64,000 nucleotides of DNA from Cornus controversa (Eukaryota; Streptophyta; Magnoliopsida; Cornales; Cornaceae). A model generated the notes under the pieces. That model made no database searches. It was not told the origin of the DNA and was given only the letters and a program-made list of their open reading frames with translations. Made by a program: the position numbers and the translations under genes. Below are positions 1 to 61,870 of the stretch, piece after piece; the stretch's first letter is position 1, and the number at the start of each line of letters is the position of its first letter. Where the stretch lies: the NCBI GenBank assembly GCA_026545225.1, contig CM048850.1:25597797-25661796 (forward strand), in the 5' to 3' direction.

Positions 1-197
1 TGATTGATCAATATAAAATCTCGATTAATCGAAGTAAAGTCTCAATCGATCGAAATAAAATCTCGATTCATTGAATAAATCTCGATTCATCGAAGTAGAT
101 CTCGATTGAGCGAGGCTGATCTCGATTGATTAAAGTGGTATTTCGATCAATCGAAATCTCGATTGATCGAGATGCACATCTCGATCAATCGAGATGC
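1..197 (+). repeat. CGAT-NN-ATCG inverted-repeat array upstream of the Athila-1 internal promoter
   Basis: The window opens inside an Athila element with about nine to ten degenerate copies of a short inverted repeat. The best copies read ATCTCGAT-CA-ATCGAGAT or its complement, with 8-bp arms and a 2-nt spacer; others are flanked by TTT/AAA. The array ends about 30 bp before a TATTTAAA box. The equivalent array of Athila-2 is at 51692-52054. The repeat is seen directly; a cis-regulatory role is inferred from its position. The array may begin before the window. Confidence 0.85.
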
Positions 198-226
198 ACG
201 CGATGCCTGCACGTGAGCCGAATTAG

Positions 227-234
227 TATTTAAA
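227..234 (+). promoter_or_regulatory. Putative internal TATA box of Athila-1 (drives ORF2)
   Basis: TATTTAAA lies just downstream of the inverted-repeat array and about 640 bp upstream of the ORF2 start codon. It is conserved in Athila-2 (51654-51661, minus strand) in the same relation to array, leader and ORF2. A pyrimidine-rich stretch follows, as expected around a plant transcription start. Inference from position and conservation only. Confidence 0.5.
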
Positions 235-457
235 CCGTTGGGCTTCCCTCTCATTTCAAAAGACCATCCGACTTCTTATCTTCTCCGAGCGATCCAAGGC
301 TTTCTCCGAGCACTGTCGCGCACTTGATCTACCATCCCCGATCAGCCACCGCCGTTCGACATAGTCCGAGATCGTCGCTAGCACTCGCACGCTCTTCTCT
401 TCGCGGCTGCGAGTTGGGTTTTCATCTTTGTGTGTCGTTCATCATCTTCGCCTTGAG

Positions 458-854
458 GTAAATAATGTATGGCTACATTTTGTGTACTTTCTCATTATTT
501 TTGATAGTTTTACGGCGTAATAAACATAGACAGTTGATGTTGGGTTGGATGGGTGCATTTGCGATATTCGTAATGAGATTTTACGGGTTTCGGGGGGGTA
601 GGAATGCATGTACGGGTGAGATATTACATTTTTTTGCTTCGAATGCTTATTGTACGGTTTGCAACCATGACCCATCGTTTCGGTTGCATCCGCTCAAGCT
701 GCCTCTTTGAGATCGAATTCTTTTGAATACATGTGTCAGCACCATGGACTAAGACCTCATTTTCATTTTTTCTTTCTGTTCTTTTAGTTTATTCTTAGTT
801 TAGTATTCCTCTTCTTTTATCTTTTATTTACGTAATTTTTGGAATAAAGTGCAG
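458..854 (+). other. Putative 5'-leader intron of Athila-1 ORF2
   Basis: The donor reads CTTGAG/GTAAAT and the acceptor AAGTGCAG/ACTG, with a long T-rich tract before the acceptor. The proposed second exon begins 14 nt before the ORF2 ATG. Athila-2 has the same structure (donor CTTGAG/GTAAGT, acceptor AAGTGCAG, 390 nt). I see no long coding frame in the interval. Splicing is inferred; both splice sites are conserved in the two elements. Confidence 0.55.
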
Positions 855-868
855 ACTGTTCCGAGATT

Positions 869-2092
869 ATGGCGAGGGTGAAGAATGCCCCCGGTTCTGT
901 TCGAGACGTGCCCGGGCGAGCCTTCCGGTCTCGGAAGTTTCACCCGGAGCAGATTTTTGACTTGAGAGAGTTCGAGACGCGTCCCGACAGCACATGGACT
1001 GTCGCCGAGCTCAGGGGGCATCGCCTCGACCAATTGTGTGTGCCTCCCACTGACGTGGCACACGAGCGTTTAGTGCAAGTCTTCTACGAGTGCATGACTT
1101 ACTCCTGCACAGCGCCAGACACATTAGAGACGGTCGTGGGCACCACGATGATTACGATTATGCCGAGCCGGATTGTGCAGATGCTTGGCATCCCTCACCT
1201 GCAGCCGCCAAATATGGTTGACCAGGACGGTCGACCGCTTTACAGGGCCACCCTTCCAGTAGACTCGACACTGTTCTCCATCGTGATGGACATGTGTGGT
1301 GGGGCGTTTACCACGCCCAGTCACAATTGCACGTCCAAATCGATGTGCCCGAGCAAATTATGGTTCCTGGACACCATTCTCATCAAGAACGTGTGTCCCC
1401 TGCAGCACGTGACAGAGCGCAGAGGCGACCTCCTCCGTTGCCTCTATGCTTTCCACACGGGCACGTGGTTTTCTGTCCCGTCGCTGGTATGGGGGCAGAT
1501 GTTCAAGGTCTGGGACGGCCTCGTCAACAAGAGGATGCCGCGAGCAGCGAGTTGGTGGCTTCCCTTTCCTTTCTTGGTCGCAGCTTTTCTCAGTAGTGCC
1601 AGTATACCAGTCAGTGATACTGACATTCAGTTGGCACCGCCCACCCGCTTCACATCTACTCATTGGGAGCGGGTGAGGCGACACTTAGAGCGACAGGACC
1701 ACCAGGGTGATCCACCAGATGATGTAGATATGGATGCCCCGGTGGAGATGGATGAGGGAGAGCCTGCAGGGGATGGGTCCGATGATGAGGAGATGGAGGA
1801 GGAGGCGATGGATATTGCTGCAGAGCGGCATGACATCCTAGCGACAGGCTACTCCTGCCTGGCGGCTGACGTAGAGCGGCTCCAGCATGGTTTTGACGAG
1901 CATGTCCAGGTGACGCAGAGTCAGCTGGCAGGCATTCGGACGAACATTTCATCTCTGGCACATGGTCAGAGGGCTATTTTAGACGAGTTCCGTGCCTTCC
2001 GGCAGGACCTGCAGTTCCTGCTTGCCGGACGAGCTTCCACCTCCACCTCTACTCCCACCGAGCCACAACCACCACCACCCGCGCTCGAGTAG
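869..2092 (+). CDS. Athila-type ORF2 (putative plant transposon protein domain), intact
   Basis: 407-residue open frame with no internal stop, placed after pol and before the 3' LTR as in Athila elements. The N-terminal half (about residues 20-260) resembles the plant transposon protein domain common in these third ORFs: a basic start (MARVKN), then a conserved block around residues 60-110 ending in MLGIPH. An acidic stretch (about 290-320, rich in D and E) leads to a likely coiled coil (about 330-385) and a Pro/Thr tail. I see no signal peptide or transmembrane helix, so an envelope role is not supported. It is closely similar to the Athila-2 ORF at 49806-51026. Molecular function is unknown. 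The ATG was chosen because it begins the similarity and follows the putative splice acceptor by 14 nt. Confidence 0.85.
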   Translation: MARVKNAPGSVRDVPGRAFRSRKFHPEQIFDLREFETRPDSTWTVAELRGHRLDQLCVPPTDVAHERLVQVFYECMTYSCTAPDTLETVVGTTMITIMPSRIVQMLGIPHLQPPNMVDQDGRPLYRATLPVDSTLFSIVMDMCGGAFTTPSHNCTSKSMCPSKLWFLDTILIKNVCPLQHVTERRGDLLRCLYAFHTGTWFSVPSLVWGQMFKVWDGLVNKRMPRAASWWLPFPFLVAAFLSSASIPVSDTDIQLAPPTRFTSTHWERVRRHLERQDHQGDPPDDVDMDAPVEMDEGEPAGDGSDDEEMEEEAMDIAAERHDILATGYSCLAADVERLQHGFDEHVQVTQSQLAGIRTNISSLAHGQRAILDEFRAFRQDLQFLLAGRASTSTSTPTEPQPPPPALE

Positions 2093-3899: not shown

Positions 3900-5304
3900 T
3901 GATAAGTGTTCAATTCTATGCATTTAAACCCTTTTATTGCATATGTTAGTTCCGTTTTTATGATTACCGAGATATGTTTACGGTATTTTTGTGTTTTTGA
4001 CGTATTGCAGGTCTTGTAGTAAATGGAGCAAAGTTTGAAGGTTTTTGGCAGCTAAAGAGAAAAGTCAGAAATGCAGCCAAAGGCATCTCGATCAATCGAG
4101 ATGTTGATCTCGATCAATCGAGATCTCGATTGATCGAGATCTCATTTCGATTGATCGAGATCTCGATCAATCGAGATCCAATCTCGATTGATCGAGATTC
4201 TGCAGAAGCCACTTGCCCACTTGCTCACCTGCTCTCCCACTTGCAACAAAATCTCCCTTTTTGCACGACTTAGGGGGATTGTCTGACTTGAACAAGACCC
4301 TTGGGGACCTTCTTGATACAAGGGATATATATATATATATATGGTGGGCCCCAAGGTTGAAAAAGGAAGCCTTAAAGCACCAAAAAGTCACATATCTCAT
4401 ATATCTCTCAAGACACATCAAAGAAAAGGAGAGACATTCGGGAGAGGAAGAGGAGAAGCTGAACCAGACCAAGAAGCTTCACTTTCTTCATCAATGGAAG
4501 AGTGCAAGGCAACCATGAGCAACTAACTCTTCTACTAGGGTGTTGGTTTCAACCCCTAGCCATGTAAACTTGTTCATCTTTGTAGCACTTGGGATTTGTA
4601 ATTAAATGTTGATTATTTAGCCTAGTGATCATGTACACTAATACATTTCTTTTATATATTCATATGATTTTGGTTTTATTCTTGTCTTAGAGTATAATCT
4701 TCATGTGAATGCACAACATTTGCATATTCCACAAGAAGTGCAAATGATGGCTAGATAATGGTGTTTAAATGAATGTGTTGTGTTTGTTTGTATAAACCAT
4801 GCCAAGATAAGGTAATTTGGATGCATGTAGGTTCACTTAGAGAGTAGGGTAATTAGATAGTTAGTTAGGTTGAAGAGCTATGCTTATTGAAGATGGATTA
4901 TGATAGGTGGACGAACACATTGATCTTTTGATATGTCATTGAGGTCACAAGCCTAATGACATTGTTAGGCATTTAATTAATGAATCCCATGCTTGCTACA
5001 CTTATGAACATGTGAATGGCTAGTGGTGGAAACTAACCCTAGTTCTCTCTCCCATCATTTACTCTTTAATTTTATTGTCATTACATTCATGCAATAGTTT
5101 ATAAACAAAAATTCAAAAACCTATTTTTAGGATTAAAGTGAAATTAATCTTTCTTTAAGACAATTGCGATTAGTCCTCGTGGGATCGATACCCTCTATAT
5201 AGAACCGTATCTACAAAGCTTCGTGCTCTTGCGAGTGGTTAAATTATATTTTGATAAAAAGGGCAAAATTAAGCTTACAATATAATTCGAGTTTAGCCAC
5301 ATCA
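3900..5304 (+). mobile_element. 3' LTR of Athila-1
   Basis: 1405-bp LTR beginning TGATAAGTG and ending CACATCA, preceded by a polypurine tract. It aligns along its length with the reverse complement of the Athila-2 LTRs (46567-47996 and 57915-59324). It holds an inverted-repeat array (4085-4199) and an (AT)n TATA-like run at about 4323-4342. Its 5' partner is outside the window. The 3' target duplication would be ACTAT at 5305-5309, which cannot be checked here. Confidence 0.85.
4085..4199 (+). repeat. CGAT-NN-ATCG array in the Athila-1 LTR (six units)
   Basis: Six inverted-repeat units in 115 bp, most with 8-bp arms (ATCTCGAT / ATCGAGAT) and CA or TG spacers, in both orientations. The array lies about 125 bp upstream of the (AT)n TATA-like run of the LTR, so it is probably U3 enhancer sequence. 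The Athila-2 LTRs have six and five units at the same place. Confidence 0.85.
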
Positions 5305-5482
5305 ACTATACTCGTCCACTAGGGGGAACCTAGGGGTTTAAAGGCTTGTTGCATATGCTAAATGCAATCGTTTCTCCCACAAAAGTGGAGTTGGGTAGTT
5401 TAGTTAGTGTTTAGTAGTTTCTTTGTTTTAGTTTTGTTTTATTCTATTGCTAAGGGACTAGCAATATGTAAGTTTGGGGGTG
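5305..5482 (+). mobile_element. Internal tail of an older Athila-like element, split by Athila-1
   Basis: The 178 bp after Athila-1 ends with the diagnostic pre-PPT hairpin (5446-5465) and polypurine tract (5471-5482). Athila-1 therefore inserted into the 3' internal region of another Athila-like element, whose LTR starts at 5483. Confidence 0.7.
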
Positions 5483-6981: not shown

Positions 6982-7530
6982 TGAATCACTCATCCAGATA
7001 ATCAAAATTGAAATACATGATGAACCAATAAAATGCCACAAATAAGAGGATATATTAGAGTATATAAATATTAAAGTTGCACATTCTCTAACAATTTAAG
7101 TTTTCAAATAAATGGTAGCTTGTCAAATCTAAAAGTTCTTGAGTTCAACGACAAGATTACCCTAGAAATTAAAATTAGAACAATGCTACTCTATCGATAA
7201 GTTAGACCTAAAACACTAGTCAAAGGACTTTTATCAACTTAGATATGTTTTAAATGATAAACATGGGTCCCACTTAAAACATGTTTAAGGTAAATAAGCC
7301 TTCAACTAGTGTTGTAGGTCTAACTTGTCGGTCCAAATATTATTTTTCTTAAAATTGAAACACTTGTCGGAACAAAAAAAAAAAAAAAAAAAAGTCACAC
7401 TTGAGTGGACATATAAGAGGATATAAATATTAGAGTGATGCTCAACAAAGCTAGTGCATGAAAAAAATTATGGCATTTAAACTTAGACAATTCTAACAGT
7501 ATATGGACGTATTGAAAAAATTTACATTTA
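6982..7530. other. AT-rich spacer, no gene seen
   Basis: Low-complexity AT-rich sequence with an A17-type run near 7374-7393. Nothing recognisable. Confidence 0.5.
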
Positions 7531-14434: not shown

Positions 14435-14682
14435 TGTAGACACCCATTTTTGACCTCCCACTTATTTTCAAATCCTAAACCAATCATACCAGGTTTTAAG
14501 ATCCCACCTCTTTGAGCATAAGCCCTAAATAGGGTAAAATGGTCATCTCTAAAAAAAATTAATTTTCAATCTATCTACCTAAACGGAAAACAGACTTCAC
14601 CATCAAGTTCAAAGGTACTAAAAACCTCAGAAACAACTACTCATGAAAATTGTAAGTCCTCCCGAACACTTGATTCCATTCA

Positions 14683-18456: not shown

Positions 18457-18585
18457 TTACGATGCATCAAAAAACCCATGACAATATATCGTAATATTGT
18501 TAAGGATGTGGGTTGAAAAGCAACACTTTTCACATGATGTTACGATACATCGTATTCTCCATTATGATGCATCCTAATCAACAAT
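18457..18585 (+). repeat. CGAT-type inverted repeats in LTR B
   Basis: Includes TACGATGCATC, TACGATACATCGTA (ACGAT-AC-ATCGT) and ATGATGCATCC within 130 bp. Same core as the Athila arrays, with a different spacer and flank. Confidence 0.65.
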
Positions 18586-21357: not shown

Positions 21358-21551
21358 AAGATTGATCGTTATTCACATTATGATTTATCATAATTTTGAA
21401 TGAAAATGGAGGCCAAGTCCAGTGCGTTATGATGGATCCTACGATACATTTGTTATTGATTGTAATTTTGTTATATCGTAACCTCAATTACAATTGATCG
21501 TATTGAGAGTTATAATTGATCGTAACTCAACGTACGATTGATCGTATTGAG
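21358..21551 (+). repeat. CGAT-type inverted-repeat array in LTR C
   Basis: Includes TACGATTGATCGTA (TACGAT-TG-ATCGTA) and several decayed copies (ATTGATCGT, ACGATACATTTG, AATTGATCGTA). It lies about 80 bp upstream of a TATATATA stretch. Confidence 0.7.
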
Positions 21552-34330: not shown

Positions 34331-34489
34331 AAAATAAAAAAGGATTGAGCCCAACCAACATAAGACTTGTTAGAAATTGACATGGATGACAATGATGATG
34401 CAAAAAAGGTCAATGTAGGGTCTTTACCGCCCTCAAATTTTAGGAACAGACCCACCCATTTTCTTAGACAAAATCAATATGTGTTTGCA

Positions 34490-34741: not shown

Positions 34742-36057
34742 TGTTGTGTGTGGAAATTTTCTAATTTATATTTACCACTCGTAATAGAATGAATCCTTGA
34801 AGGATAGGGCTCTAAGTTGAGGGTGTCAATCCCACAGAGACTATGTAGGAATAATTCGCTAAAAGTCAAAGGTTGGCTCTCGTTTGTTTGCTTACTCTAC
34901 TTCAAAAGCATAAATGATAATTAAAATGCAGAGTTTGAGAAAAGAGTAAAGGGCTAGGGTGAGACTTCACCACTAACCTCGTAATATGTCAAACTTATAG
35001 TAAATTGGAAGAATTCATGCAAATGTGTACTAGGTGGTACAAATGGCTTGGCACCTACAATGCTACCTTCAAGAGGATACATGCACGTTAAAATACCTAC
35101 CTATTTACCTAGATATCTAATTAACTAAGTGTAGCTAATTTACCATCTCTCAACATGGACTATGCAAATCTAGCTATGCATGTTAAAGTGAAAACTAGTA
35201 CCAAGCCATTACGGGTAGTCCTTGTGGAACTACAAGTGTTTGAAGATCATGTGAGGAAAATAAACAATCTAAGACATGACAGAAAAATTACACACATGAA
35301 CATAAGGAATTTGTAAACTAATATTACTCATAAGGCTCAAGGCAAGGTACATATACACAAAAATTACATAAAAACCCCAATTCACTAAAGTTAGAACATA
35401 TTTACAAGACTAGGGTTTGTCAAAACCTAGAGAAGGATTAGTTGATCATGGTGGGCTGGAAGCACTCCATAGATAGATATGAATCCATGCTCAAAATGGT
35501 CTTCAAGGCCTTACAAAGCCATCTTTGAAACTTTCCCTCTCTAGAACTTCACTTTCTCTCTCTAGAACTCTATATATACTATCTATTACAAGAATTATGT
35601 TATATTTCTCTATTACATATTTCCTAGTTATATATCTGATTTTAGGCTCAAAATATCACAAAAATTCCATTCAAGGCTTCATCCAAGCAAAATTGGACAA
35701 GTGGCAAGTGAAGAAAATATCTCTAAAAAAATATCTTCTGCAGGATTGGGCGATGCATCGAAGCTATAACTTCGATGCATCGATCTTCCTTTGTTCTCAA
35801 ATCTTTCAACTCTTCAGCTTCTCGACTCCGGTCTTGACACGCCATTAACCCATCCTTGCCAACAATCTTCCTTGAAGTACGCTTGAATTGGGGAATGCAT
35901 TCTTAATTTTATAAAGGAGTCAAATTACTCCAAAAATTGACTTTGCACCTGAAATCATCAAAAACATAAAAACACATAAAACTATACAATATGTGTATCT
36001 AAGGGATTAAAATACATAAGTAAAGGCACGAGAATGTATAACATTCATCGCTTATCA
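34742..36057 (-). mobile_element. 3' LTR of Athila-B (second family)
   Basis: 1316-bp minus-strand LTR (TGATAAGCG... to ...ACACAACA), next to a polypurine tract at 36058. It is closely related, with scattered substitutions and indels, to the LTR at 44086-45458. Left flank TTCAA. Two GATGCATC palindromes at 35751-35784 form a further 13-bp inverted repeat. Confidence 0.8.
35751..35784 (-). repeat. CGAT-GC-ATCG palindrome pair in the Athila-B LTR
   Basis: CGATGCATCGAAG and its exact complement CTTCGATGCATCG lie either side of six nt. Each contains the palindrome TTCGATGCATCGAA or part of it. This is the family-specific version of the Athila-1/-2 array. Confidence 0.85.
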
Positions 36058-37730: not shown

Positions 37731-38935
37731 CTAAGGCTGCGGCGGTGCGAAAGTAGAAGCAAAATTTGTGCTACAAGAGCCCAAGGTCATCCTAAGCAAC
37801 AGCTCAAACCGCTGTTGATCGTCCAAAATAGTGCTAATGCTAGCACCAAGGGCATCTAAGCCCCCATCGGTCTGTCGACGATGCTCAGTAGTTACACGGT
37901 AGTGCTCGAAAAAATACACTTGTAATTAGGCCAAATCCACAGCCAAACAGGTATAGCCAGTGGCAAGGTAATCTGAATCAACTCTGCCCATGCCAGACAT
38001 ATCAGCCTCAAGCTCCTCATCAGTGTCCTCTGTTGGGACATCCATCTCCATAGCCTCCCCGAGCTCATCCTTATCAGTCTCACCAGCCTCCATCTCAGGT
38101 GCGACCCACAAAAAAGCTCTCATATAGGCCACCATCTTCTTCCAGCTCTGGAGAGTGAAACGTGGTGGCGGCCTATAGTAATCTCAGATGCCTCAAACAG
38201 AAAAGTTGTCATATTCAAGAAGGCGGTGATGAGACAGCGAAAAGGAAGCTTCATGGTGGGTGACTTCTTGTTGGGCTTCCGAATCAGTTGGTCTTAGTCT
38301 TTATGAAGCTGACCCCAAATAATGGCCGGTACTAAAAACTAGCACCTGGTATCTATGGCATAGATGGCCTGTAAGAACTCACCACGACACTCAATAGAAT
38401 ACCCAAAAGGATGGGCATTCTTTTGTAAGACGGTGTCTAAAAACCACCAGCGCCAAGGAATCAAGGACTTGCTTATGGCATTGTTCTTATAGTTGGTAAA
38501 TTACCCAGCACACAGTTCTCGCACCATTTGGGAAAAAGTGTGATTCTGTGGCAGCTTGTGAGACACAAAATATTCCTCCCCCGGTTCAATATCCTCGGGT
38601 TACACGTGTGGCAGCCCGATAATCTCAGAAATGGTAGCAACAGTGATGGTGTGAGTCGTACCATCTACAGTAGTCCTCAGAACACCGGGCTCTACACAGT
38701 CATACTTGAGGTTCGTATAGAAGGCTTGAAAAAGCCTCGGGTAAGCCACTTCAGTAGCCGGTGACAAAAATTTGATGAGGTCACGACTCTGTAGTGCCTC
38801 TAATGTACAAATGGCATACCAGTCGTCCTCAAACTCCGCTTCCTCAGTTAGATATGCGGGTATCATCTCTCAATTCTTCCATTGACCGCGAGGGAAGTTG
38901 CGAATCACACCTGTAGGGACCTTGATACGGACCAT
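37731..38935 (-). pseudogene. Athila-B ORF2 remnant
   Basis: The ATG at 38935 begins MVRIKVPTGVIRN, matching the ORF2 start of the other elements. Then EAEFEDDWYAICTLEALQ and RLFQAFYTNLKYDC...IIGLPHV correspond to the plant transposon protein domain. The acidic coiled-coil part is at 38135-37926 (DELGEAMEMDVPTEDTDEE, YLATGYTCLAVDLA). At least four stops or shifts break it, including a TGA about 20 codons in. Confidence 0.75.
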
Positions 38936-39428
38936 ATTCTGTCAAAAATGTGGCAAGGGAAGTTACACAAATGGTAAGGGTGGTCTCGATTCCGTCAGTC
39001 CCTAGCAAGGGTGAACAAGTCTCAACAAAACTCAAAAATCTTCAATATTATTCCCAATCTCTAAGATAATCAATTGTACACAACAATCCTCCAAACTTCA
39101 TCCACAAATCTGAAAGTAATGCACAACTCCTCCAATGCCAACAAACTCAAAAAATCAACTAAAAAGGGGTAAAAAAAAACCCTTACCTAGCAAAGGCCAA
39201 AACGAACTCTAATGAGGCTATCCATGCGCAGAATCACCCTCCTTGAACTCGAGAATGAAGATGAAAGATGATGATTGTGATGATGTTGGCAATGGATTAT
39301 GATGGGGATGTGTGCGGGACTTTCGGACGAGAGGGAAAGAAGAAAGAATCGAGAGAGAGGGAAAAAATGAGAGGGAGAGAACAGAGGTTCAAATTTTAAG
39401 TGACTACATGTGCAGTCACGTGCTCAGG

Positions 39429-39630
39429 ATCGATGCATCGAAGTGTGTTGATGCAGCGAACTAGACATTTTGATGCATCGAAGTGTTGATGTATCGAACA
39501 TCTATCAAAACAAAGTACGAAAGCTATTGGAATTGGAATAGAAATGGGATATTTAAAGATCGATACATCGAAGTTGATTTTGATACATCGAAGGAGTGAT
39601 GCATTGAAGTGGATAATTCAATGCATCGAA
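39429..39630 (-). repeat. GATGCATC palindrome array upstream of Athila-B ORF2
   Basis: About eight copies of TTCGATGCATCGAA-like words (also GATACATC, GATGTATC), positioned between pol and ORF2 exactly as the array in Athila-1/-2. Confidence 0.85.
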
Positions 39631-44085: not shown

Positions 44086-45458
44086 TGTTGTGTGCAGAAA
44101 TTTTCTAATTTATATTTACCACTCACAATAGAATGAATCCTTGAAGGATAGGGCTCTAAGTTGAGGGTGTCGATCCCACAGAGACTACATAGGAATAATT
44201 CGCTAAAAGTCGAAGGTTGGTTCTCGTTTTTTTTCTTACTCTACTTCAAAAGCATAAATGATAATTAAAATGCAGAGTTTGAGATAAGAGTAAAGGGCTA
44301 GGGTGAAACTTCACCACTAGCCTTGTAATACGTTAAACTTATAATAAATTGGGAGAATTCATTCAATTGTGTACTAGGTGGTGCAAATGGTTTGTGGTCT
44401 ACAATGCTACCATCAAGAGGATACATGCACCTTAAAATACTATAATCCATCTTCGATATGTGTCAATTCCCTACCTACCTACTTACCTAGATACCTAATT
44501 AACTAAGTGTAGCTAATTTACCATCTCTTAGCAAGGACTATGCAAATCTAGCTATGCATGTTAAAGTGAAAACTAGTACAAAGCCATCACGTGTAGTCCT
44601 TGTGGAACTACAAGTGTTTGAAGATCATGTGAGAAAAATAAACATTCTAACCCAAGAAAGATAAATTACACACGTGAATATAAGGAATTTTTAAACTTAT
44701 ATTAATGATAAGGCTCAAGGTAAGGTACATATACACAAAAATTAAATAAAAACTCCAATTCACTAAAGTTAGAACATATTTACAAGACTAGGGTTTGTCA
44801 AAACCCTAAAGAAGGATTAGTTGATCATGGTGGGTTGGAAGCACTCCATAGATAGAGATGAATCCATGTTCAAAATAGTCTTTAAGGCCTTACAAAACCC
44901 TTATTGAAGCTTTCCCTCTCTAGAACTTCACTTTCTCTCTCTTGAATTCTATATATGCTATCTATTATAAGAATTATGTTATATATCTCTAATACATATT
45001 TTCTAGCTATATATCTGATTTGAGGCTCAAAATATCACAAAAATCATGTTCAAGGTTTTATCCAAGCAAAATTGGACAAGTGGTAAGTGAAGAAAATATC
45101 TGCAAAAAAAGATCTTCTACAGGATTGGGCGATGCATCGAAGTAGGAACTTCAATGCATTGAAGCTGTAACTTCAGTGCATTAATCTTCCCTTATTCTGA
45201 AATCTTTCGACTCTTTAACTTCTCGACTTCGGTCTTGACACGCCATTCACCCATCCTTGCTAACAATCTTCCATGAAGTACGCTTGAACTAAGGAATGCA
45301 TTCTTAAACTGATAAAGGAGTCGAATTATGCCAAAAATTGACTCTGAACCTGAAATCATCAAAAACATAAAAACACGTAAAATTATACAATATGTGCATC
45401 TAAGGGATTAAAATACATAAGTAAATGCACAAGAATGTATAACATTCAACGTTCATCA
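44086..45458 (-). mobile_element. Athila-B family LTR without internal region, TSD TTCAC
   Basis: 1373 bp, TG..CA. TTCAC lies at 44081-44085 and 45459-45463. The Tat RT frame continues on the right. It has an extra segment of roughly 30 bp (near 44440) relative to the LTR at 34742. Decayed GATGCATC words lie at 45130-45186. Confidence 0.85.
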
Positions 45459-46566: not shown

Positions 46567-47996
46567 TGATGTGGTCGGAACTAAATTATATTGTAAGCTT
46601 AATTTTTCCCTTTTCATCAAAATATAATTTAACCACTCGCAAGAGCACGAATCTTTGTAGATAAGGTTCTATATAGAGGGTATCGATCCCACGAGGACTA
46701 GTCGCAATTGTCTTAAAGGAAGATTAATTACACTTTAATTCTAAAAACAGGTTTTTGAATTTGTGTTTATCAACTATTGCATGAATGAAATGACAAGAAA
46801 AGTAAAGAGTTTAAAGTTGGGAGAGAGAACTAGGGTTGGTTTCCACCACTAGCCGTTCACATGTTCATAAGTGTAGCAAGCATGGGATTCATTAATTAAA
46901 TGCCTAACAATGTCATTAGGCTTGTGACCTCAATGACATATCAAAAGATCAATGTGTGTGCTAACCTATCATAATCCATCTTCAACAAGCATAGCTCTTC
47001 AACCTAACTAACTACCTAATTACTCTACTCTCTAAGTGAACACTACATGCATCCAAACTACCTTGTCTTGGCATGGTCTATACAAACTAACATCACACAT
47101 TCATTTAAACACCATCATCTAGCCATCATTTGCACTTCTTGTGGAATATGCAAATGTTGTGCATTCAAGTGACAAAATCTACTCTAAGACAAGAATAAAT
47201 TCCATATCAAATGAATATATATAAGAGATGTATTTGTGTACATAATCACTAGGCTAAATAATCAACATTTAATTACAAATCCCAAGAGCTACAAAGATGA
47301 ACAAGTTTACATGGCTAGGGGTTGAAACCAACACCCTAGTAGAAGAGTTTAGTTGCTCATGGTTGCCTTGTACCCTTCCATTGATGAAGAAAGTGAAGCT
47401 TCTTGGTCTGGTTCAGCTTCTCCTCTTCCTCTCCCAAAGGTCTCTCTTGAAGTATTCTGATGTGTGTTGAGAGATATGTGAGATATGAGAGATATGGCCC
47501 TTTTATGCTTTTTGGCTCCTTTTTCTCCCTTGGGGGCCCACCATATATATATATATATCATTATATATATCTCTTGTATCAAGAAGGCACCCAAAAGTCT
47601 TGTTCAAGTCATACAATCCCCCTAAGTCGTGCAAAAAGGGGGATTTTGTTGCAAGTGGGAGAGCAGGTGAGTAAGTGGCCAAGTGGGTTCTGCAGAATCT
47701 TGATTGATCGAGATTGAATCTCGATTGATCGAGATTTCGATCAATCGAAATGAGATCTCGATCAATCGAGATTTCGATTAATCGAGATCAACATCTCGAT
47801 TGATCGAGATGCCTTTGGCTGCATTTTCTGATTTCTTCTCTTGACTGCAGAAAGGTTCAAACTTTGCTCCATTTACTCCAATACCTACAAAACATCAAAA
47901 ACACAAAAATACCGTAAACATATCTCGGTAGACGCAAAAACGAAACTAACATATGCAATAAAGAGGGTTCAAATGCATAGAATTGAACACTTATCA
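46567..47996 (-). mobile_element. 3' LTR of Athila-2
   Basis: 1430 bp on the minus strand, TGATAAG..CATCA. About 11 substitutions, one 1-bp and one 21-bp indel separate it from the 5' LTR (counted by eye), roughly 0.8% divergence, so the insertion is young. An (AT)n TATA-like run lies near 47544-47572, and a six-unit CGAT array at 47703-47814. Confidence 0.95.
47703..47814 (-). repeat. CGAT-NN-ATCG array in the Athila-2 3' LTR (six units)
   Basis: Six inverted-repeat units. The 5' LTR has five; the extra 21 bp here is one unit with its linker. Confidence 0.85.
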
Positions 47997-49805: not shown

Positions 49806-51026
49806 CTACTCGAAGGCGGGTGCTGGTGGTGGCTCGGTGGGAGGAGAAGTGGAGGCGAAAGCTCGACCTGCGAACAGGAACTGCAGGTCCTGCCGGAAGG
49901 CTCGAAACTCGTCTATAATAGCTCTCTGGCCTTGTGCCAGAGAAGAAATGTCCGTCCGAATGCCTGCCAGCTGACTCTGCGTCACCTGGACATGCTCGTC
50001 AAAACCCTGCTGGAGTCGCTCTACGTCAGCCGCCAGGCAGGAGTAGCCTGTCGCTAGTATGTCATGCTGCTCTGCAGCCACGTCCATCTCCGCCTCCTCC
50101 ATCTCCTCATCCTCTGAGTCAGCCCCTGTAGGCTCTCCCTCATCCGTCTCCACCGGGGCATCCATATCTACATCGTCTGGTGGATCACCCTGGTGGTCCT
50201 GTCGCTCTAAGTGTCGCCTCACCCTCTCCCACTGAGTAGATGTGAAGCGGGTGGGCGGTGCCAACTGAATGTCAGTACGACTGACCGATATACTGGCACT
50301 GCTGAGAAAAGCGGCGATCAGGAAAGGGAAGGGAAGCCGCCAACTAGCTGCTCTCCGCATCCTCTTGTTCACGAGGCCGTCCCAGACCTTGAACATCTGC
50401 CCCCAGATTAGCGACGGGATCGAAAACCAAGTGCCCGTGTGGAAAGCATAGAGGCAACGGAGGAGGTCGCCCCTGCGCTCTGCCACGTGTTGCAGCGGAC
50501 ACGCGTTCTTGATGAGAACGGTGTCCAGGAACCAAAACCTGCTCGGGCACATCGATTTGGACGTGCAGTTGTGACTGGGCGTGGTGAACGCCTCGCCACA
50601 CATGTCCATCACGATCGAGAACAGTGTCGTGTCTGCGGGGAGTGCGGCCCTGAAGAGTGGCTGACCGTCCGGGCCAACCATGTCCGGTGGCTGCTGGTGA
50701 GGGATGCCGAGCATATGCGCAATCCGGCTTGGCGTAATCGTGATCGTGACAGTGCCCACGACCGTCTCTAGTGTATCCGGCGCGGTGCAGGAGTAGGTCA
50801 TGTGATCGTAAAAGACCTGCACTAAGCGCTCGTGTGCCACGTCGGTGGGAGGCACACATAGCCGATCGAGGCGACGCCTCCTGAGCTCGGCAACCGTCCA
50901 CGCGGTGTCGGGACGACTCTCGAACTCTGCTAAGTCAAAAATCTGCTCCGGGTGGAACTTCCGAGACCGGAAAACTCGCCCGGGCACGTCTCGAACAGAA
51001 CCGGCGGCGTTCTTCACCCTCGCCAT
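49806..51026 (-). CDS. Athila-type ORF2 (putative plant transposon protein domain), intact
   Basis: 406 residues from MARVKNAAGSVRD, uninterrupted although gag-pol of the same element has five stops. It has the same domain order as the Athila-1 protein: basic N-terminus, plant transposon protein-like domain (about 50-265, with HMLGIPH near 110), an acidic DEE stretch near 295-320, a coiled coil near 330-385 and a Pro-rich tail. The frame is open upstream to 51158, adding 44 mostly hydrophobic residues. Those fall in the T-rich end of the putative leader intron and are not open in Athila-1, so I start at 51026, 14 nt after the proposed acceptor. Function unknown. Confidence 0.85.
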   Translation of the reverse strand: MARVKNAAGSVRDVPGRVFRSRKFHPEQIFDLAEFESRPDTAWTVAELRRRRLDRLCVPPTDVAHERLVQVFYDHMTYSCTAPDTLETVVGTVTITITPSRIAHMLGIPHQQPPDMVGPDGQPLFRAALPADTTLFSIVMDMCGEAFTTPSHNCTSKSMCPSRFWFLDTVLIKNACPLQHVAERRGDLLRCLYAFHTGTWFSIPSLIWGQMFKVWDGLVNKRMRRAASWRLPFPFLIAAFLSSASISVSRTDIQLAPPTRFTSTQWERVRRHLERQDHQGDPPDDVDMDAPVETDEGEPTGADSEDEEMEEAEMDVAAEQHDILATGYSCLAADVERLQQGFDEHVQVTQSQLAGIRTDISSLAQGQRAIIDEFRAFRQDLQFLFAGRAFASTSPPTEPPPAPAFE

Positions 51027-51040
51027 AGTCTCGGAATAGT

Positions 51041-51430
51041 CTGCACTTGATTCCAAAAATTGCGTAAATAAAAGATAAATAAGAAGAAAACTAAAATAAG
51101 AATAAACTAAAAGAAGAAAAAAAAATGAAAATGAAGTCCTAGTCCATGGCGCTGACAAGAATTCAAAAAGTCGCTCTCAAAGAGGCAGTGTGAACGGATG
51201 CAACCGAAACGAAGGTGCCGCGGTTACACACCGTACACTAAGCATTTTAAACAAAAAGAATGCCAAATCTCACTCCTACATGAATTCCTACCCCCCGAAA
51301 CTTGCAAAATCTCATTACAAACACCGCAAATGCACCCATCCAACCCAATATCATCTAAATATGTTTATTACGCCGTAAAACTATCAAAAATGGCGAAAAA
51401 GTATACAAAAAGTAGCCATGCATCACTTAC
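51041..51430 (-). other. Putative 5'-leader intron of Athila-2 ORF2
   Basis: Donor CTTGAG/GTAAGT and acceptor AAGTGCAG, 390 nt, aligned with the intron proposed in Athila-1. Confidence 0.6.
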
Positions 51431-51653
51431 CTCAAGAGGAAGAAGATGAACGGCTCAAACAGAAGAAGACCCACTCGCAGCCGCGAAGAGAAGATAGCGC
51501 GAGCGCTAGCGGCGACTTCGTACTGTGTCGGATGGCGGCGGATGATCGGGAATGGTAGATCGAGTGCTCGGGAGTGCTTGGAGAAAGTCTGGATCGCACG
51601 GAGGAAGGGAAGAATTTGGATGGTTGTTTTGAAATGAGAGGGAAACCCAACGG

Positions 51654-51661
51654 TTTAAATA
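51654..51661 (-). promoter_or_regulatory. Putative internal TATA box of Athila-2
   Basis: TATTTAAA on the minus strand, about 30 bp after the CGAT array and about 225 bp before the leader donor site, as in Athila-1. Confidence 0.5.
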
Positions 51662-51691
51662 AGCTTTCGGATCACGTGCAGGCATCGCGTG

Positions 51692-52054
51692 CATCTCGAT
51701 TGATCGAGATGTGCATTTCGATCAATCGAGATTTCGATTGATCGAAATCTCACTTCGATCAATCGAAATCAGCTTCGATCGATCGAAATTCCTTCCTCGA
51801 TCAATCGAAAATTCCTTCACTGAATCGAGTTTTTACTTCGATCAATCGAACTTTTAATTCATTCAATCAAAATTTTATTTTGATCAATCGAAATCTTTGA
51901 TCGATCGAAGATCTATCGAAGTGCAATCGAAGAATACTACCTCTCGGGACTTTCGACTTGGCAAATTCTCTGCAATTTTTCGATCGATCGAAACTGAAAT
52001 CTCGATCAATCGAAATCTCGATTGATCGAGATCTTGGTTTCGATTAATCGAGAT
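51692..52054 (-). repeat. CGAT-NN-ATCG array upstream of Athila-2 ORF2
   Basis: About 15 units in 363 bp. Flanks vary between ATCTCGAT/ATCGAGAT and TTTCGAT/ATCGAAA. A unit-free gap of about 55 bp lies near 51925-51985. Confidence 0.9.
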
Positions 52055-52223
52055 GCTCAAAAACAGTCAGCTTCAGGTATGTTACAGGGACTTGGATATT
52101 TGGGAATTAGATACTACATTGCTTAGATACAAACCTACTTTGGATTAAAGGGACATCATGAAATCATGATAGCTACCATGGCTTCGCCACCTTACACGTC
52201 TATGGCGCGACGTCCGGATCGGC

Positions 52224-55200
52224 TCACGAGTCAAAATACACGGGATCCGTCAAAGTGACGATATCCATGTATTCGGTGGTGACTTGGTCATCCACGCACG
52301 CTTTTAAGCGCTGCCCGTTTACTTTGAACAATGAGCCGTCTTTCAAGTCCTTTAATTCCACCGCTCCGTGGGGAGCGACGGAATTAACCAAAAATGGACC
52401 ATCCCAACGGGAGCGAAGTTTTCCGGGAAACAAATGGAGGCGGGAGTTGTACAACCATACTTTTTGGCCCAGCGAAAATGTTTTGACTCGAATATTACGA
52501 TCATGAAAGGCTTTGGACTTTTCCTTATAGATTTTTGCATTCTCATACACGTCATGTCGCAATTCTTCCAATTCATTTAATTAAAGCTTTCGATTAGATC
52601 CAGCCTTTTGCATGTCAAAATTGAAAGTTTTGGTGGCCCACATAGCTTTATGCTCCAATTCAACCGGAAGATGGCATGCCTTGCCATAAACCAACCGATA
52701 AGGATACATTCCAATGGGAGTTTTATATGCGGTTCGGTATGCCCATAATGCATTGTTTAGTCGCAATGACCAAGCTTTCCGGTCGGGCCGAATAGTTTTC
52801 TGAAGAATGTTCTTAATCTCCCTATTGGATACTTCTACTTGGCCACTGGTTTGAGGATGGTATGGGGTGGCTACTTTGTGTGTGACGGAGTATTTGGTAA
52901 GCAAGGTTCGAAGGAACTGGTTATAGAAATGTTTACCTCCGTCACTAATGATGGCCCGAGGCTTACCAAACCGGCTAAAAATATTAGCTTGAATGAATTT
53001 AACCACGACTGCGTGATCATTGGTTTTGGTAGCAACGGCCTCTATCCACTTAGATACGTAGTCCACCGCCACAAGTATGTACTCATGACCAGTAGAGGGT
53101 GGAAATGGTCCCATGAAGTCAATGCCCCACACATCAAATATTTCAACGATAAGAATAGGGTTAAGAGGCATCATGTCCTTCCGAGACATCGCGCCAAGGC
53201 GTTGACATCGCTCACAAGAGCGGCAGAATGAATATGCATCCCGATGAAGTGTCGGCCAGAAAAATCCGCATTGGAGAATTTTTGCTGCGGTTTTCTTAGC
53301 ACTAAAGTGTCCCCCACAAGCGAGTGTATGACAAAACTTGAGAATGCTTTGGAATTCACTGTTGGGTACACACCTTCGAATTATTTGGTCGGGGCAATAT
53401 TTGAACAATTGAGGATCGTCCCAATAATATGATCGTGATTGGGAGAGAAAACGATCCTTCTCTTGCTTGGTCCAAGAAGATGGTATTTTACCGGTTGCCA
53501 AGTAATTAACCACATCCGCATACCAAGGGATACTCTCTTGAGAGATGACAAAGAGTTGTTCATCCGGGAAGGATTCACAAACTGGAATGGAATTATGGAG
53601 GGATTCAACAAGAATTCTAGACAGGTGGTCAGCCACCACATTTTCAGTTCCCTTTTTGTCTCTAATCTCAAAATTGAACTCTTGCAATAAGAGTATCCAT
53701 CGGATCAACCTAGGCTTGGTGTCCTTTTTGGCCAAAAGATGCCGGAGGGCAGCATGGTCCGAATAGACAATGACCTTTGAACCTAATAAAAAAGCTCGAA
53801 ATTTGTCTAATGCAAATACTACCGCAAGCAGTTCCTTTTTCATTGTTGTATAATTGATTTAAGCCTCGGAAAGGGTTTTACTTGCGTAGTAGATGACATG
53901 TGGCAGTTTGTCTACTCGTTGCCCTAAGACAGAACCCATGGCATAATCGGATGCATCACACATAATCTCAAATGGGAGAGCCCAATTTGGAGGGATTAGA
54001 ATTGGAGCGGTTGTAAGCATGGTGCGGAGTTTTTCAAAAGCGTTAAGGCACGCTTCATCAAAGGTAAAGCACGACTCTTTTTCAAGAAGGCGACACAAAG
54101 GCCGAGAGATCTTGCTAAAGTCTTTGATGAAACGGTGATAAAATCGTTTGAGAACACAAGCTAGATTTTGGAGGCATGATTCAAATGAAGGCCCAAAAAT
54201 GGAAAAATCATCCATGAACACTTCCAAGAATTTTTCCACCATGTCCGAGAAGATAGACATCATACACCATTGAAAAGTCGCCGGTGCATTGCACAACCCA
54301 AAGGGCATGCGTCTATAAGCAAATGTGCCGAAGGGACATGTAAAGGTGGTTTTCTCTTGGTCCCTCGGGTCTATAGCAACCTGATTATAGCCGGAATATC
54401 CATCCAAAAAGCAATAAAAACTTTGCCCGGCTAATCTCTCCAAGATTTGATCAATAAATGGGAGGGGGAAGTGATCTTTCCGAGTGGCTGAATTTAATTT
54501 CCGATAATCAATACACACTCTCCATCCTGTGGTGGTGCGTTGGGGAACTAATTCACCCTTATCATTAGGTTGCACCGTAATACCAGACTTCTTTGGAACC
54601 ACTTGAGTGGGACTAACCCACTTGCTATCTGAGATGGGGTAAATGATTCCCGCATCTAGTAACTTCACCACCTCCTTCATTACAACGTCCTTCATGTTTG
54701 GATTTAATCGACGTTGTGCCTCCCTTGAGGTCTTTGCATCCTCTTCCAAGTGTATGCGGTGCATACAAATAGAAGGGTCTATTCCCTTAAGATCTGCCAC
54801 ACTCTATCCTATTGCCTCCTTGTGCTCTTTTAGCACTTTTATAAGTTCCATCTCTTGATCATGGGTAAAATTAGAAGCAATAATGACTGGAAGGGTCTCA
54901 TTAGCGCCCAAGAAAACATACTTGAGTGTAGCCGGTAGGGGCTTGAGCTCAAGTTGTGGTGGGGAAATTAAAGAAGGAGTTTGGGAAGTTTTGGTCAAAG
55001 GGGGCAAGGGTTCTCTCGGAACTCTCCATTTAGGCAAATCTATGACAGTATTAACATCGAGCATGGAATTGACTTCACATATGTATTGCTCAATGTCAAA
55101 ATCATCATAGTTGAAGTGATTTAGGCATGCCTCTAAAGGATCCTTGGAAAGAATAGAAGGAAGTGCTTCTTGAACAAGGTCTTCCACAACATCAACACAA

Positions 55201-57914: not shown

Positions 57915-59324
57915 TGATGTGGTCGGAACTAAATTATATTGTAAGCTTAATTTTTCCCTTTTTATCAAAATATAATTTAACCACTTGCAAGAGCACGAAT
58001 CTTTGTAGATAAGGTTCTATATAGAGGGTATCGATCCCACGAGGACTAGTCGCAATTGTCTTAAAGGAAGATTAATTACACTTTAATTCTAAAAACAGGT
58101 TTTTGAATTTGTGTTTATCAACTATTGCATGAATGAAATGACAAGAAAAGTAAAGAGTTTAAAGTTGGGAGAGAGAACTAGGGTTGGTTTCCCCCACTAG
58201 CCGTTCACATGTTCATAAGTGTAGCAAGCATGGGATTCATTAATTAAATGCCTAACAATGTCATTAGGCTTGTGACCTCAATGACATATCAAAAGATCAA
58301 TGTGTGTGCTAACCTATCATAATCCATCTTCAACAAGCATAGCTCTTCAACCTAACTAACTACCTAATTACTCTACTCTCTAAGTGAACACTACATGCAT
58401 CCAAACTACCTTATCTTGGCATGGTCTATACAAACTAACATCACACATTCATTTAAACACCATCATCTAGCCATCATTTGCACTTCTTGTGGAATATGCA
58501 AATGTTGTGCATTCAAGTGACAAAATCTACTCTAAGACAAGAATAAATTCCATATCAAATGAATATATATAAGAGATGTATTTGTGTACATAATCACTAG
58601 GCTAAATAATCAACATTTAATTACAAATCCCAAGAGCTACAAAGATGAACAAGTTTACATGGCTAGGGGTTGAAACCAACACCCTAGTAGAAGAGTTTAG
58701 TTGCTCATGGTTGCCTTGCACCCTTCCATTGATGAAGAAAGTGAAGCTTCTTGGTCTGGTTCAGCTTCTCCTCTTCCTCTCCCGAAGGTCTCTCTTGAAG
58801 TATTCTGATGTGTGTTGAGAGATATGTAAGATATGAGAGATATGGCCCTTTTTATGCTTTTTGGCTCCTTTTTCTCCCTTGGGGGCCCACCATATATATA
58901 TATATATCATTATATATATCTCTTGTATCAAGAAGGCACCCAAAAGTCTTGTTCAAGTCATACAATCCCCCTAAGTCGTGCAAAAAGGGGGATTTTATTG
59001 CAAGTGGGAGAGCAGGTGAGCAAGTGGCCAAGTGGGTTCTGCAGAATCTCGATTGATCGAGATTTCGATCAATCGAAATGAGATCTCGATCAATCGAGAT
59101 TTCGATTAATCGAGATCAACATCTCGATTGATCGAGATGCCTTTGGCTGCATTTTCTGATTTCTTCTCTTGACTGCAGAAAGGTTCAAACTTTGCTCCAT
59201 TTACTCCAATACCTGCAAAACATCAAAAACACAAAAATACCGTAAACATATCTCGGTAGACGCAAAAACGGAACTAACATATGCAATAAAGAGGGTTCAA
59301 ATGCATAGAATTGAACACTTATCA
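57915..59324 (-). mobile_element. 5' LTR of Athila-2
   Basis: 1410 bp, pairing with 46567-47996. The outer end is bounded by GCCCG at 59325-59329, matching GCCCG at 46562-46566 beyond the other LTR. The CGAT array is at 59046-59139 (five units), with an (AT)n TATA-like run near 58892-58920 downstream in its orientation. Confidence 0.95.
59046..59139 (-). repeat. CGAT-NN-ATCG array in the Athila-2 5' LTR (five units)
   Basis: One unit fewer than the 3' LTR; otherwise identical in order. Confidence 0.85.
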
Positions 59325-60531: not shown

Positions 60532-60534
60532 TTA

Positions 60535-61010
60535 GATGTGGAACAGTCAAATAAAGAAACTGCTTGGACACTGTTTGTGGATGGCTCAGCCAGCACCCCG
60601 AGCTAGTGGAGCAGGGCTAGTAATAGTTCCCCTGAAAGGAGAAAATATTAAATATGACCTCCGATTCAGTTTTAAGGCAACTAATAACAAAATAAATTAT
60701 AAAGCTTTACTAGTTAGACTAAGTATGGTAAAAGCTCTTAGAGTAACACGACTGAAGGCTTACACTGACTCTCAACTAGTTGCCAGACAAGTCCAAGGTA
60801 AATATGAGGCCAAGGATGAAAAAATGAAAACCTACCTTCAAAAGTTAGAGGAAGTTAAGGAGCACTTTGAAGACTTCTCTATCTGTCAGATTCCATGAAG
60901 GAGAATGAGCAAACAGATGTGTTAGCTCGACTAGCCACCGCAGAGAAGAGAAAAGTCACACCTGTGGAGTACCTGGATAGCCTAATTACATCATAGGATT
61001 GGCCACATGA
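60535..61010 (+). pseudogene. Tat second RNase H domain
   Basis: Resumes the Tat frame directly after the TTA duplication. It shows the plant-Tat additional RNase H: ETAWTLFVDGSAS, then GAGLVIVPLKGE, then KAYTDSQLVARQVQGKYEAKD with the catalytic Asp residues of LFVDG and YTDSQL. A one-base shift occurs around 60595 and stops near 60897. Two RNase H domains mark the Tat clade. Confidence 0.8.
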
Positions 61011-61032
61011 AGTACAATAAGTTGCTCAAGGC

Positions 61033-61350
61033 GTGGAATGGGCGCACCCCATTATTAGATATATAAAGGATGGAGAGTTACTGCCAGATCATGCAGAAGC
61101 TCGGAAGGTGAGAATACGAGCATCTAGGTACACCCTCATCAATGGGGTGCTCTACAAAAGAGGGTTTTCCATACCATACATGTGTTGCATTTCTACAAAA
61201 AAGGTAGAACACATCCTCAAAGACATACATGAAGGCCTTTGTGGAAACCATGTTGGAGGTAGGTCATTGGCCTATAAAGTCATTCACCAAGGATATTTTT
61301 GGCCCATTATGCAGAGTGATGCATTAGACTTCATGAGAAAGTGTGACATC
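61033..61350 (+). pseudogene. Tat integrase N-terminus, truncated
   Basis: Contains the linker (RYTLINGVLYKRGF) and the start of the HHCC zinc finger (HEGLCGNHVGGRSLAYKVIHQGYFWP...FMRKC). The second Cys and all of the catalytic core are missing. The TGTGACATC at 61341 also looks like an LTR start, so the cut may be an insertion. Confidence 0.75.
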
Positions 61351-61638
61351 TAGGAATCGTGACCATTTTTGGCCGGTTTTCTTTTTATTTCATTTAAATG
61401 TCACGCCCCAAAACCCGGACCGCCGGGACTCCCCCAGACCTACCCAGAATCCTGAGTGTGAACCCGTTCACTCAACCCCATGAACAATCTCAATTACACT
61501 CATGCATTAGTATCAAGGTTTGATACCATGCTATAACGAATAAAAAATACCCAATTTAAAAAAAAATCACACTCAATTCCGATCTAAAATGAATAAATTA
61601 CGTCGAAATGAAGTTTTGAAAAATGATGTGAATAGTAA

Positions 61639-61870
61639 TTTTGATTGTGCGAAAATGACACTCGATTATGCGAAATAAATCTTGATTGTGCGAAGATTTC
61701 ACCCTCTTGGGACCTCAGACCTACAATATTTCGCACGATCGAAATGAGGGTTTCGATTGTGCAAAATTTCTCCTGTCTGGACCCTAAAAATCACCATAAA
61801 TCATCACCCCTTCGCACAATCGAAATGGGGGTTTCGATTGTGTGAAATAGGCATTTCGCACGATCGAAAT
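61639..61870 (-). repeat. TTTCGATTGTGCGAAA repeats in LTR E
   Basis: About six copies of TTTCGAT-TG-TGCGAAA or its complement TTTCGCACAATCGAAA. This is a looser version of the CGAT-NN-ATCG theme in which the second arm reads TGCG. Confidence 0.75.

What the first reader, a model, noticed from the sequence alone, without database searches (positions are those of the whole stretch)
1..61870. A shared inverted-repeat grammar, CGAT-NN-ATCG, in LTRs of two retrotransposon clades
Clusters of short inverted repeats occur in Athila-1/-2 LTRs (4085-4199, 47703-47814, 59046-59139; spacer CA/TG, flanks ATCT or TTT), Athila-B LTRs (35751-35784, 45130-45186; spacer GC, flank TT), and chromovirus LTRs B and C (18457-18585, 21358-21551; spacer AC/TG, flank TA). 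LTR E (61639-61870) has the looser TTTCGAT-TG-TGCGAAA. Each family has its own dialect around the same core, usually about 80-130 bp upstream of a TA-rich run. Convergence on one architecture in separate lineages suggests a common host factor, an insulator-like protein, or a silencing or hairpin signal. I know of no description of this cross-family pattern; that is not proof of novelty.
Basis: partly seen in the sequence, partly recalled or inferred. Interest (0 to 1): 0.88.

Follow-up and report, generated by a model that had tools for sequence, protein, structure and literature searches.

The report
Palindrome arrays mark two retrotransposon promoters
Several families of plant jumping genes in this stretch carry clusters of the same short mirror-image DNA word upstream of their main promoter and, in two families, also in front of their extra gene, which suggests that one host protein may switch on both.

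Summary
CGAT-NN-ATCG occurs 39 times in 64 kb against 0.28 expected, heads a scan of palindromes, and all 39 lie in arrays. In the five LTRs checked the array precedes a TATA-like run. LTR E uses another word.

They form arrays between pol and the third (env-like) ORF in both Athila families, in a dialect close to that of the family's LTR. Each is followed by CACGTG, a TATA-like box, a leader, GT-AG intron signals and the ORF3 start codon. I read this as an internal ORF3 promoter sharing its activator site with the LTR promoter.

Conservation, arm covariation and lack of G-U bias favour a DNA-level, dimer-type binding site over an RNA hairpin; each test is modest and some are post hoc. No transcript or binding data were available.

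The architecture is known: Bousios et al. 2010 (PMC2829016, section 9) describe it in Ty1/copia Sireviruses, mostly with a CGG-CCG core, and call it Sirevirus-specific. Here it appears in Ty3/gypsy elements with a different core: a new variant of a known kind.

The parts
59046..59139 (-). U3 palindrome array, 5' LTR of Athila-1 copy A2 (LTR 57915-59324)
   Evidence: 5 exact cores; LTR pair 97.7% identical; PBS-like TGGCGCCGTTG at 57908; TATA-like run from 58918
47695..47814 (-). U3 palindrome array, 3' LTR of A2 (LTR 46567-47996)
   Evidence: 5 exact cores and one copy with a CpG transition
4085..4199 (+). U3 palindrome array, 3' LTR of Athila-1 copy A1 (LTR 3900-5305)
   Evidence: 6 exact cores; 3 of 93 aligned bases differ from the A2 5' LTR against 25 of 185 in the U3 before the array
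51690..52056 (-). Internal palindrome array of A2 between pol stop (52221-52232) and ORF3
   Evidence: 11 exact cores; pol stop placed
51652..51678 (-). CACGTG (51673-51678) and TATA-like TATTTAAACC (51652-51661) of the putative internal ORF3 promoter, A2
   Evidence: same order in A1 at 210-215 and 227-236
51038..51435 (-). Putative ORF3 leader intron of A2: donor motif 51425-51435, acceptor motif 51038-51048; ORF3 ATG within 51021-51029
   Evidence: read by eye, coordinates; not tested by transcripts
49809..51029 (-). ORF3 (third, env-like ORF) of A2
   Evidence: the open frame 49809-51176 gives a weak PF20167 match, 28.4 bits, below the cut-off of 45, E 1.8e-06
1..197 (+). Internal array of A1, cut by the window edge; followed by CACGTG 210-215, TATA-like 227-236, donor 453-463, acceptor 847-857, ORF3 ATG within 866-874
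   Evidence: 5 exact cores; the eight best-conserved of 79 windows against A2 start at 118-188
35751..35784 (-). U3 array of Athila-B 3' LTR, dialect TTCGATGCATCGA
   Evidence: 2 exact cores
45130..45186 (-). U3 array of Athila-B 5' LTR, one exact core plus decayed copies
39425..39628 (-). Internal array of Athila-B between pol stop (39823-39833) and ORF3
   Evidence: 2 exact and 4 one-mismatch cores
38932..39422 (-). Athila-B putative internal promoter and leader: CACGTG 39417-39422, TATA-like 39390-39399, donor 39181-39191, acceptor plus ATG 38932-38944
   Evidence: ORF3 piece 38603-38869 matches A2 ORF3 at 23 of 52 residues, E 3e-13
18457..18585 (+). U3 array of chromovirus-type LTR B, dialect TACGATNNATCGTA
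   Evidence: 1 exact, 2 one-mismatch cores; TATA run from 18667; Met-type PBS-like site, one mismatch, at 18829
21358..21551 (+). U3 array of chromovirus-type LTR C, dialect TACGATTGATCGTA
   Evidence: 1 exact, 2 one-mismatch cores; TATA run from 21626; PBS-like site, one mismatch, at 21774; gag and protease matches downstream
61639..61870 (-). Array in LTR E with a different word, TTTCGATYRTGCGAAA (8 units, both orientations)
   Evidence: no CGATNNATCG at 0-1 mismatch; strand by my reading of the LTR end

Best explanation
The arrays are clustered binding sites for a host DNA-binding protein that acts as a dimer on CGAT-NN-ATCG (half-site ATCG plus one or two outer bases that differ between families). 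In the LTR they form the upstream activating part of U3 and drive the genomic RNA. In the two Athila families with ORF3 a second array of similar dialect, with a CACGTG box and a TATA-like box, forms an internal promoter that drives a separate ORF3 mRNA, spliced in its leader. Shown: the words, their placement in U3 and before ORF3, the similar dialects, the order of TATA-like box, intron signals and ATG. Inferred: protein binding, dimer, activation rather than repression, transcription start of ORF3, splicing, and that one factor serves all families.
For: Enrichment and placement. The internal promoter regions of the two families give no BLAST match with each other (matches of at least 45 bp) yet share the order array, CACGTG, TATA-like box, leader, GT-AG signals, ATG, and homologous ORF3. 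Dialects of LTR and internal array are alike within a family: TCTCGAT/ATCGAGA 42 of 48 in the five Athila-1 arrays, CGATGCATC/GATGCATCG 9 of 10 in the Athila-B arrays. The part of the internal array next to the TATA-like box is the best-conserved stretch of the first 840 bp of A1 against A2 (95% against a mean of 83%); 10 of 107 bases differ there against 26 of 126 before and 104 of 596 after it (P 0.026 against both together; limits 128-235 chosen after seeing the alignment). LTR array: 3 of 93 differ against 25 of 185 in the U3 before it (P 0.006); CpG kept 20 of 20 against 18 of 26 in the rest of the LTR (P 0.006; sites counted from both sequences). Arms covary among 49 unique dyads: outer pair 7 matches in 30 against 20.3 in shuffles (P 0.001), pair 6 in 45 against 36.7 (P 0.0005) (11 pairs tested). 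No excess of G-U over C-A deviations (17 to 26). Precedent: Sirevirus palindromes in the same two places.
Against: No transcript, chromatin or binding data. The LTR array is not the most conserved part of the LTR, and against the whole rest of the LTR the difference is P 0.055. Between the two Athila-B LTRs the windows over the array are not conserved above average (0.83-0.93 against a mean of 0.905, with gaps). The conservation comparison rests on one pair of diverged Athila-1 copies; dyads within a family are related, so covariation counts are not independent, and within Athila-1 alone pair 7 gives only P 0.022 and pair 6 nothing. The internal A2 array has more TTTCGAT than TCTCGAT half-sites (11 against 7), so the dialect match is not exact. 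Spacing between dyads shows no helical phase in families other than Athila-1 (P 0.41). One Athila-type LTR has no array. LTR E uses another word. The chromovirus evidence is one exact core per LTR. Intron and TATA-like boxes are read by eye.
Confidence: 0.58

Rival explanations
1. The arrays act as RNA: the 3' U3 array and the internal array are both within the genomic RNA, fold into long hairpins and feed small RNAs that silence the element (or help RNA dimerise). They would be a host target or packaging signal, not a promoter.
For: All 8 arrays folded lie below the shuffle mean, z -2.8 to -10.7 (in two of the 8, one of 200 shuffles folded as well). Maize Sirevirus palindromes attract excess small RNAs (Bousios et al. 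2016, seen only as described in a passage of PMC10760457). 12 of 15 one-mismatch cores are CpG transitions, as expected in methylated DNA.
Against: Any palindrome array folds well, so the z-scores are weak evidence. Deviations are not biased to G-U. In the seven arrays checked a TATA-like box follows. CpG decay is expected in any methylated element. An Arabidopsis study reports no genome-wide correlation of DCL3-RdDM target elements with palindromes (PMC4977677 passage, data not shown there).
Confidence: 0.22
2. By-product: short palindromic units spread by local duplication and inverted duplication, and by conversion between LTR and internal array, with no function.
For: Within Athila-1 the LTR and internal arrays are about 80% alike over 118-124 bp and share 22-16-21 spacing; the two LTRs of A2 differ by one 21-bp unit.
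Against: The same core occurs in families whose arrays do not align, in the same kinds of place; in Athila-1 cores and CpGs are conserved above the adjoining U3.
Confidence: 0.12
3. Insulator-like or silencing-complex site shared among element clades.
For: Clustered dyads bound by one factor are compatible with it; no test here excludes it.
Against: Placement is promoter-proximal, also inside the element before ORF3; nothing seen here points to a boundary.
Confidence: 0.08

Closest known systems
Sirevirus repeated motifs (RM), Bousios et al. 2010, PMC2829016 (section 9 and two passages read)
   Same: Palindromic motif repeated many times per element, one consensus per element, in the upper half of the LTR upstream of TATA and, in ENV-bearing elements, upstream of ENV; the authors say this supports an internal ENV promoter.
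   Different: Sireviruses are Ty1/copia and 12 of 13 RMs have a CGG-CCG signature; here Ty3/gypsy elements with CGAT-NN-ATCG. The paper calls the RM Sirevirus-specific. Its exception Tnd-1 (ACAATCGATTGT) contains ATCGAT.
Grande accessory gene with its own promoter (Gomez-Orte et al. 2013; title seen in the reference list of PMC11963269)
   Same: A plant LTR element with an extra 3' gene transcribed from its own promoter.
   Different: Another lineage (recalled: Tat); I saw only the title, so whether it has palindromes is unknown to me.
Athila/Calypso/BAGY-2 env-like elements
   Same: Extra ORF after pol, tRNA-Asp-type PBS (for Calypso/Diaspora stated in a passage of PMC1142308).
   Different: For BAGY-2 and Athila a splice acceptor for ENV has been predicted (passage in PMC2829016); here an internal promoter with its own leader intron is proposed.
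Plant GATC motif acting through GATA factors (PMC11525189 passages)
   Same: Short GATC-containing word acting in multiple copies.
   Different: Acts downstream of the start site, with minimal effect upstream. By my reading its rule YVGATCBR does not fit the CA/TG-spacer cores and fits only those with a CG spacer; Athila-B cores lack GATC.

Membership tests
Sirevirus RM | Palindromic motif in many copies per element (at least 8 in the paper) | tested here: met
   Met in Athila-1 copy A2: 11 internal and 5 per LTR. Athila-B reaches 8 only if its 4 one-mismatch internal copies are counted (2 exact in the 3' LTR, 2 exact internal). LTRs B and C have 3 each at 0-1 mismatch, so not met there.
Sirevirus RM | Cluster in the LTR upstream of TATA | tested here: met
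   five LTRs checked; TATA-like boxes are pattern matches
Sirevirus RM | Further copies upstream of the ENV gene in ENV-bearing elements | tested here: met
   both Athila families with ORF3; that ORF3 is an envelope was not tested
Sirevirus RM | CGG-CCG core | tested here: not met
   core is CGAT-NN-ATCG
Sirevirus RM | Carried by Ty1/copia Sirevirus elements | tested here: not met
   A2 domain order protease, RT, RNase H, integrase is Ty3/gypsy order (order recalled)
Athila lineage | tRNA-Asp type PBS and third ORF after pol | tested here: met
   PBS-like TGGCGCCGTTG after the A2 5' LTR (label recalled, and tRNA-Asp for relatives); no such site was found for Athila-B within one mismatch; ORF3 homologous between the families
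Athila lineage | RT phylogeny within Athila | not tested
Chromovirus (LTRs B, C, E) | Chromodomain at the integrase end | not tested
   only Met-type PBS-like sites after LTRs B and C and gag/protease matches after LTR C; LTR E assigned by resemblance of its end only
Internal promoter | Transcription start between the array and ORF3 | not testable with these tools
   needs RNA data

The most novel reading that the evidence does not exclude
A single host dimeric factor recognising CGAT-NN-ATCG has been recruited independently by several Ty3/gypsy lineages, and Athila elements use it twice, at the LTR and at an internal ORF3 promoter, so that genomic and env-like RNAs are co-regulated. Together with the Sirevirus case this would be a general rule for env-bearing plant retrotransposons in both superfamilies.
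Probability: 0.3. Interest if true: 0.72.

Novelty: new variant of a known kind. Interest (0 to 1): 0.5.

Why it matters
How plant env-like genes are expressed is unsettled: splicing, stop-codon suppression and an internal promoter have all been proposed (passage in PMC2829016). A similar palindrome array at both the LTR and the ORF3 leader, in Ty3/gypsy as in Ty1/copia, gives a concrete, testable internal promoter and suggests that two superfamilies use one regulatory plan.

Tried and rejected
Helical phasing of the dyads: not significant in families other than Athila-1 (R 0.24, P 0.41; distances typed and from my reading of LTR E). RNA-level constraint: no G-U bias. LTR E as the same word: rejected. 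GATA-factor GATC motif as the binding site: poor fit (for the rule; the fit was judged by eye). Exchange between families: no cross-family match of the arrays at 45 bp or more; very short exchange would escape. ORF3 relatives in the protein database: 7186 candidates, none scored, so host and spread stay unknown. Rfam: one tRNA match. Palindromes as insertion targets (PMC6911290, 12 of 22 passages seen): that paper is about flanks of insertion sites and finds only a slight preference; it does not explain arrays inside LTRs.

Literature: ten searches were counted; no listed title or abstract start describes palindrome arrays in Athila or chromovirus LTRs. Of the 26 papers with 'athila' and 'palindrom' I saw main-text passages in six (PMC2829016, also its section 9; PMC10794571; PMC5738225; PMC4977677; PMC3212565; PMC6911290), hits only in the reference list in three (PMC11302176, PMC11963269, PMC12046899), and 17 only in the listing. 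One search listed 12 of 50 papers. Outside that set I saw passages of PMC1142308, PMC11525189 and PMC10760457. Most subscription papers are not held, and the 2016 Sirevirus palindrome paper was not available.
Full report
What is there. The window is dense in plant LTR retrotransposons. An Athila-type element A2 runs on the minus strand from 59324 to 46567 with LTRs 97.7% identical; its open frames give gag, protease, RT, RNase H and integrase matches followed by a third ORF. A second copy, A1, runs on the plus strand from the window edge to 5305 (89.7% identical to A2 over their shared 5.3 kb). A related family, Athila-B, lies on the minus strand with LTRs starting near 45458 and 36057. LTRs B (before 18829) and C (before 21774) are each followed by a Met-type primer-site-like sequence with one mismatch. 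LTR E ends near 61393 on the minus strand, by my reading of its end against the end of LTR B (sequence printed).

The observation. CGATNNATCG occurs 39 times against 0.28 expected. By place: 16 in Athila-1 LTRs, 16 in Athila-1 internal arrays, 3 in Athila-B LTRs, 2 in the Athila-B internal array, one each in LTRs B and C. Against a null made from each array's own composition the Athila-1 LTR arrays are only moderately unusual (P 0.014-0.034), the internal arrays and LTRs B and C clearly so (P 0.002 or less), LTR E not at all. In an unbiased scan of palindromes TCGAT-N2-ATCGA ranks first. In LTRs B and C the exact core occurs once each, but TACGAT or ATCGTA occurs 10 times in 382 bp out of 26 in the window. 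LTR E carries 8 units of TTTCGATYRTGCGAAA in both orientations and no core within one mismatch. The Athila-type LTR starting near 5483 and the stretch 25281-27300, next to another primer-site-like sequence, have no core, so the array is frequent but not universal.

The overlooked half. 18 of 39 cores lie outside LTRs, between the pol stop and ORF3. In A2 the order is pol stop 52221-52232, array 52056-51690, CACGTG 51673-51678, TATTTAAACC 51652-51661, leader, donor motif 51425-51435, acceptor motif 51038-51048, ATG within 51021-51029. A1 repeats the part that lies in the window. Athila-B has pol stop 39823-39833, array 39628-39425, CACGTG 39417-39422, TTAAAATTTG 39390-39399, donor 39181-39191, acceptor and ATG 38932-38944. 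The ORF3 proteins are related (23 of 52 residues, E 3e-13), whereas the promoter DNA of the two families gives no BLAST match of 45 bp or more. The internal array resembles that family's LTR array in dialect: TCTCGAT/ATCGAGA 42 of 48 in the Athila-1 arrays, CGATGCATC/GATGCATCG 9 of 10 in the Athila-B arrays. The match is not exact: A2's internal array holds more TTTCGAT than TCTCGAT half-sites (11 against 7), and TTTCGAT also occurs in LTR E. CACGTG occurs 13 times in the window; three lie just after the internal arrays (210, 39417, 51673) and one between array and TATA run in LTR B (18628); this was noticed after the fact.

Constraint. Between A1 and the A2 5' LTR, 3 of 93 bases differ in the LTR array, 25 of 185 in the U3 before it and 116 of 1291 in the rest of the LTR as a whole (P 0.006 and 0.055). 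All 20 CpG comparisons in the array are kept against 18 of 26 elsewhere in the LTR (P 0.006). The LTR array is not the most conserved part: stretches near 4468-4626 and 4915-5014 are higher. Between the two Athila-B LTRs the array windows are not above average. In the internal region the eight best of 79 windows start at 118-188 and cover the last dyads, the CACGTG and the TATA-like box, while the distal part of that array differs at 26 of 126. Decayed cores mostly lose a CpG: 12 of 15 one-mismatch cores are CpG transitions where 4 of 24 single changes would be (P about 1e-7), a mark of methylated DNA.

Protein site or RNA hairpin. Among 49 unique dyads (of 54 with 0-1 mismatch) the outer arm bases covary (pair 7: 30 against 20.3; pair 6: 45 against 36.7), though copies are related, 11 pairs were tested, and pair 6 reflects differences between families. 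The spacer is self-complementary in only 7 of 34 Athila-1 dyads, and it varies. The 8 arrays folded as RNA have z -2.8 to -10.7, which any palindrome array would tend to. If RNA pairing were selected, G-U should outnumber C-A on the sense strand; the count is 17 to 26. I therefore prefer a DNA-level dyad for a dimeric protein, without excluding the other. Helical phasing was not significant outside Athila-1.

Known relatives. Bousios et al. 2010 (PMC2829016; section 9 and two passages read) describe palindromic repeated motifs in 13 Sireviruses, in the LTR upstream of TATA and, in the nine with ENV, in the linker (77 of 79 copies upstream of ENV), 12 of 13 with a CGG-CCG signature, and call the motif Sirevirus-specific. 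The present arrays match in anatomy and fail on core and superfamily. [quoted passage not shown] So the kind is known; the Ty3/gypsy occurrence with one core shared across clades, and the internal array before ORF3 in Athila, I did not find described in the searches listed under Tried and rejected, which cover only the open library.

Verdict. Real, not chance, probably functional promoter sites; a new variant of a known kind. The claim of one shared host factor is plausible but untested; the strongest new point is the putative internal ORF3 promoter.

Noticed in passing
2794 (+), 49113 (-), 37293 (-): A second copy of the polypurine-tract sequence AAGTTTGGGGG lies about 1.1-1.2 kb before the one at the 3' LTR in A1 (one mismatch), A2 and Athila-B, in A2 and Athila-B inside a similar block. 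Four other one-mismatch matches lie elsewhere. Bousios et al. mention multiple PPTs in Sireviruses.
   Followed up: partly
33592-34735 and 42957-44080: Both Athila-B LTR copies are joined to about 1.1 kb of further shared sequence that, by my reading, resembles an antisense RT fragment of another Ty3/gypsy element; an old insertion or a segmental duplication could explain it.
   Followed up: no
near 59049 against 47696-47721: The two LTRs of A2 differ by one 21-bp unit of the array, so units are lost or gained in the genome or during reverse transcription.
   Followed up: no
14673-16086: Tandem repeat block with a recurring GGTC-N5-GACC palindrome.
   Followed up: no
7195-7330: Imperfect inverted repeat of about 136 bp (76.8%), possibly a MITE.
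   Followed up: no
8896-8966: tRNA match above the Rfam cut-off (35.7 bits against 29).
   Followed up: no
60536-61350: RNase H-like and integrase zinc-binding matches end close to the end of LTR E, as if LTR E had inserted into an older element.
   Followed up: no
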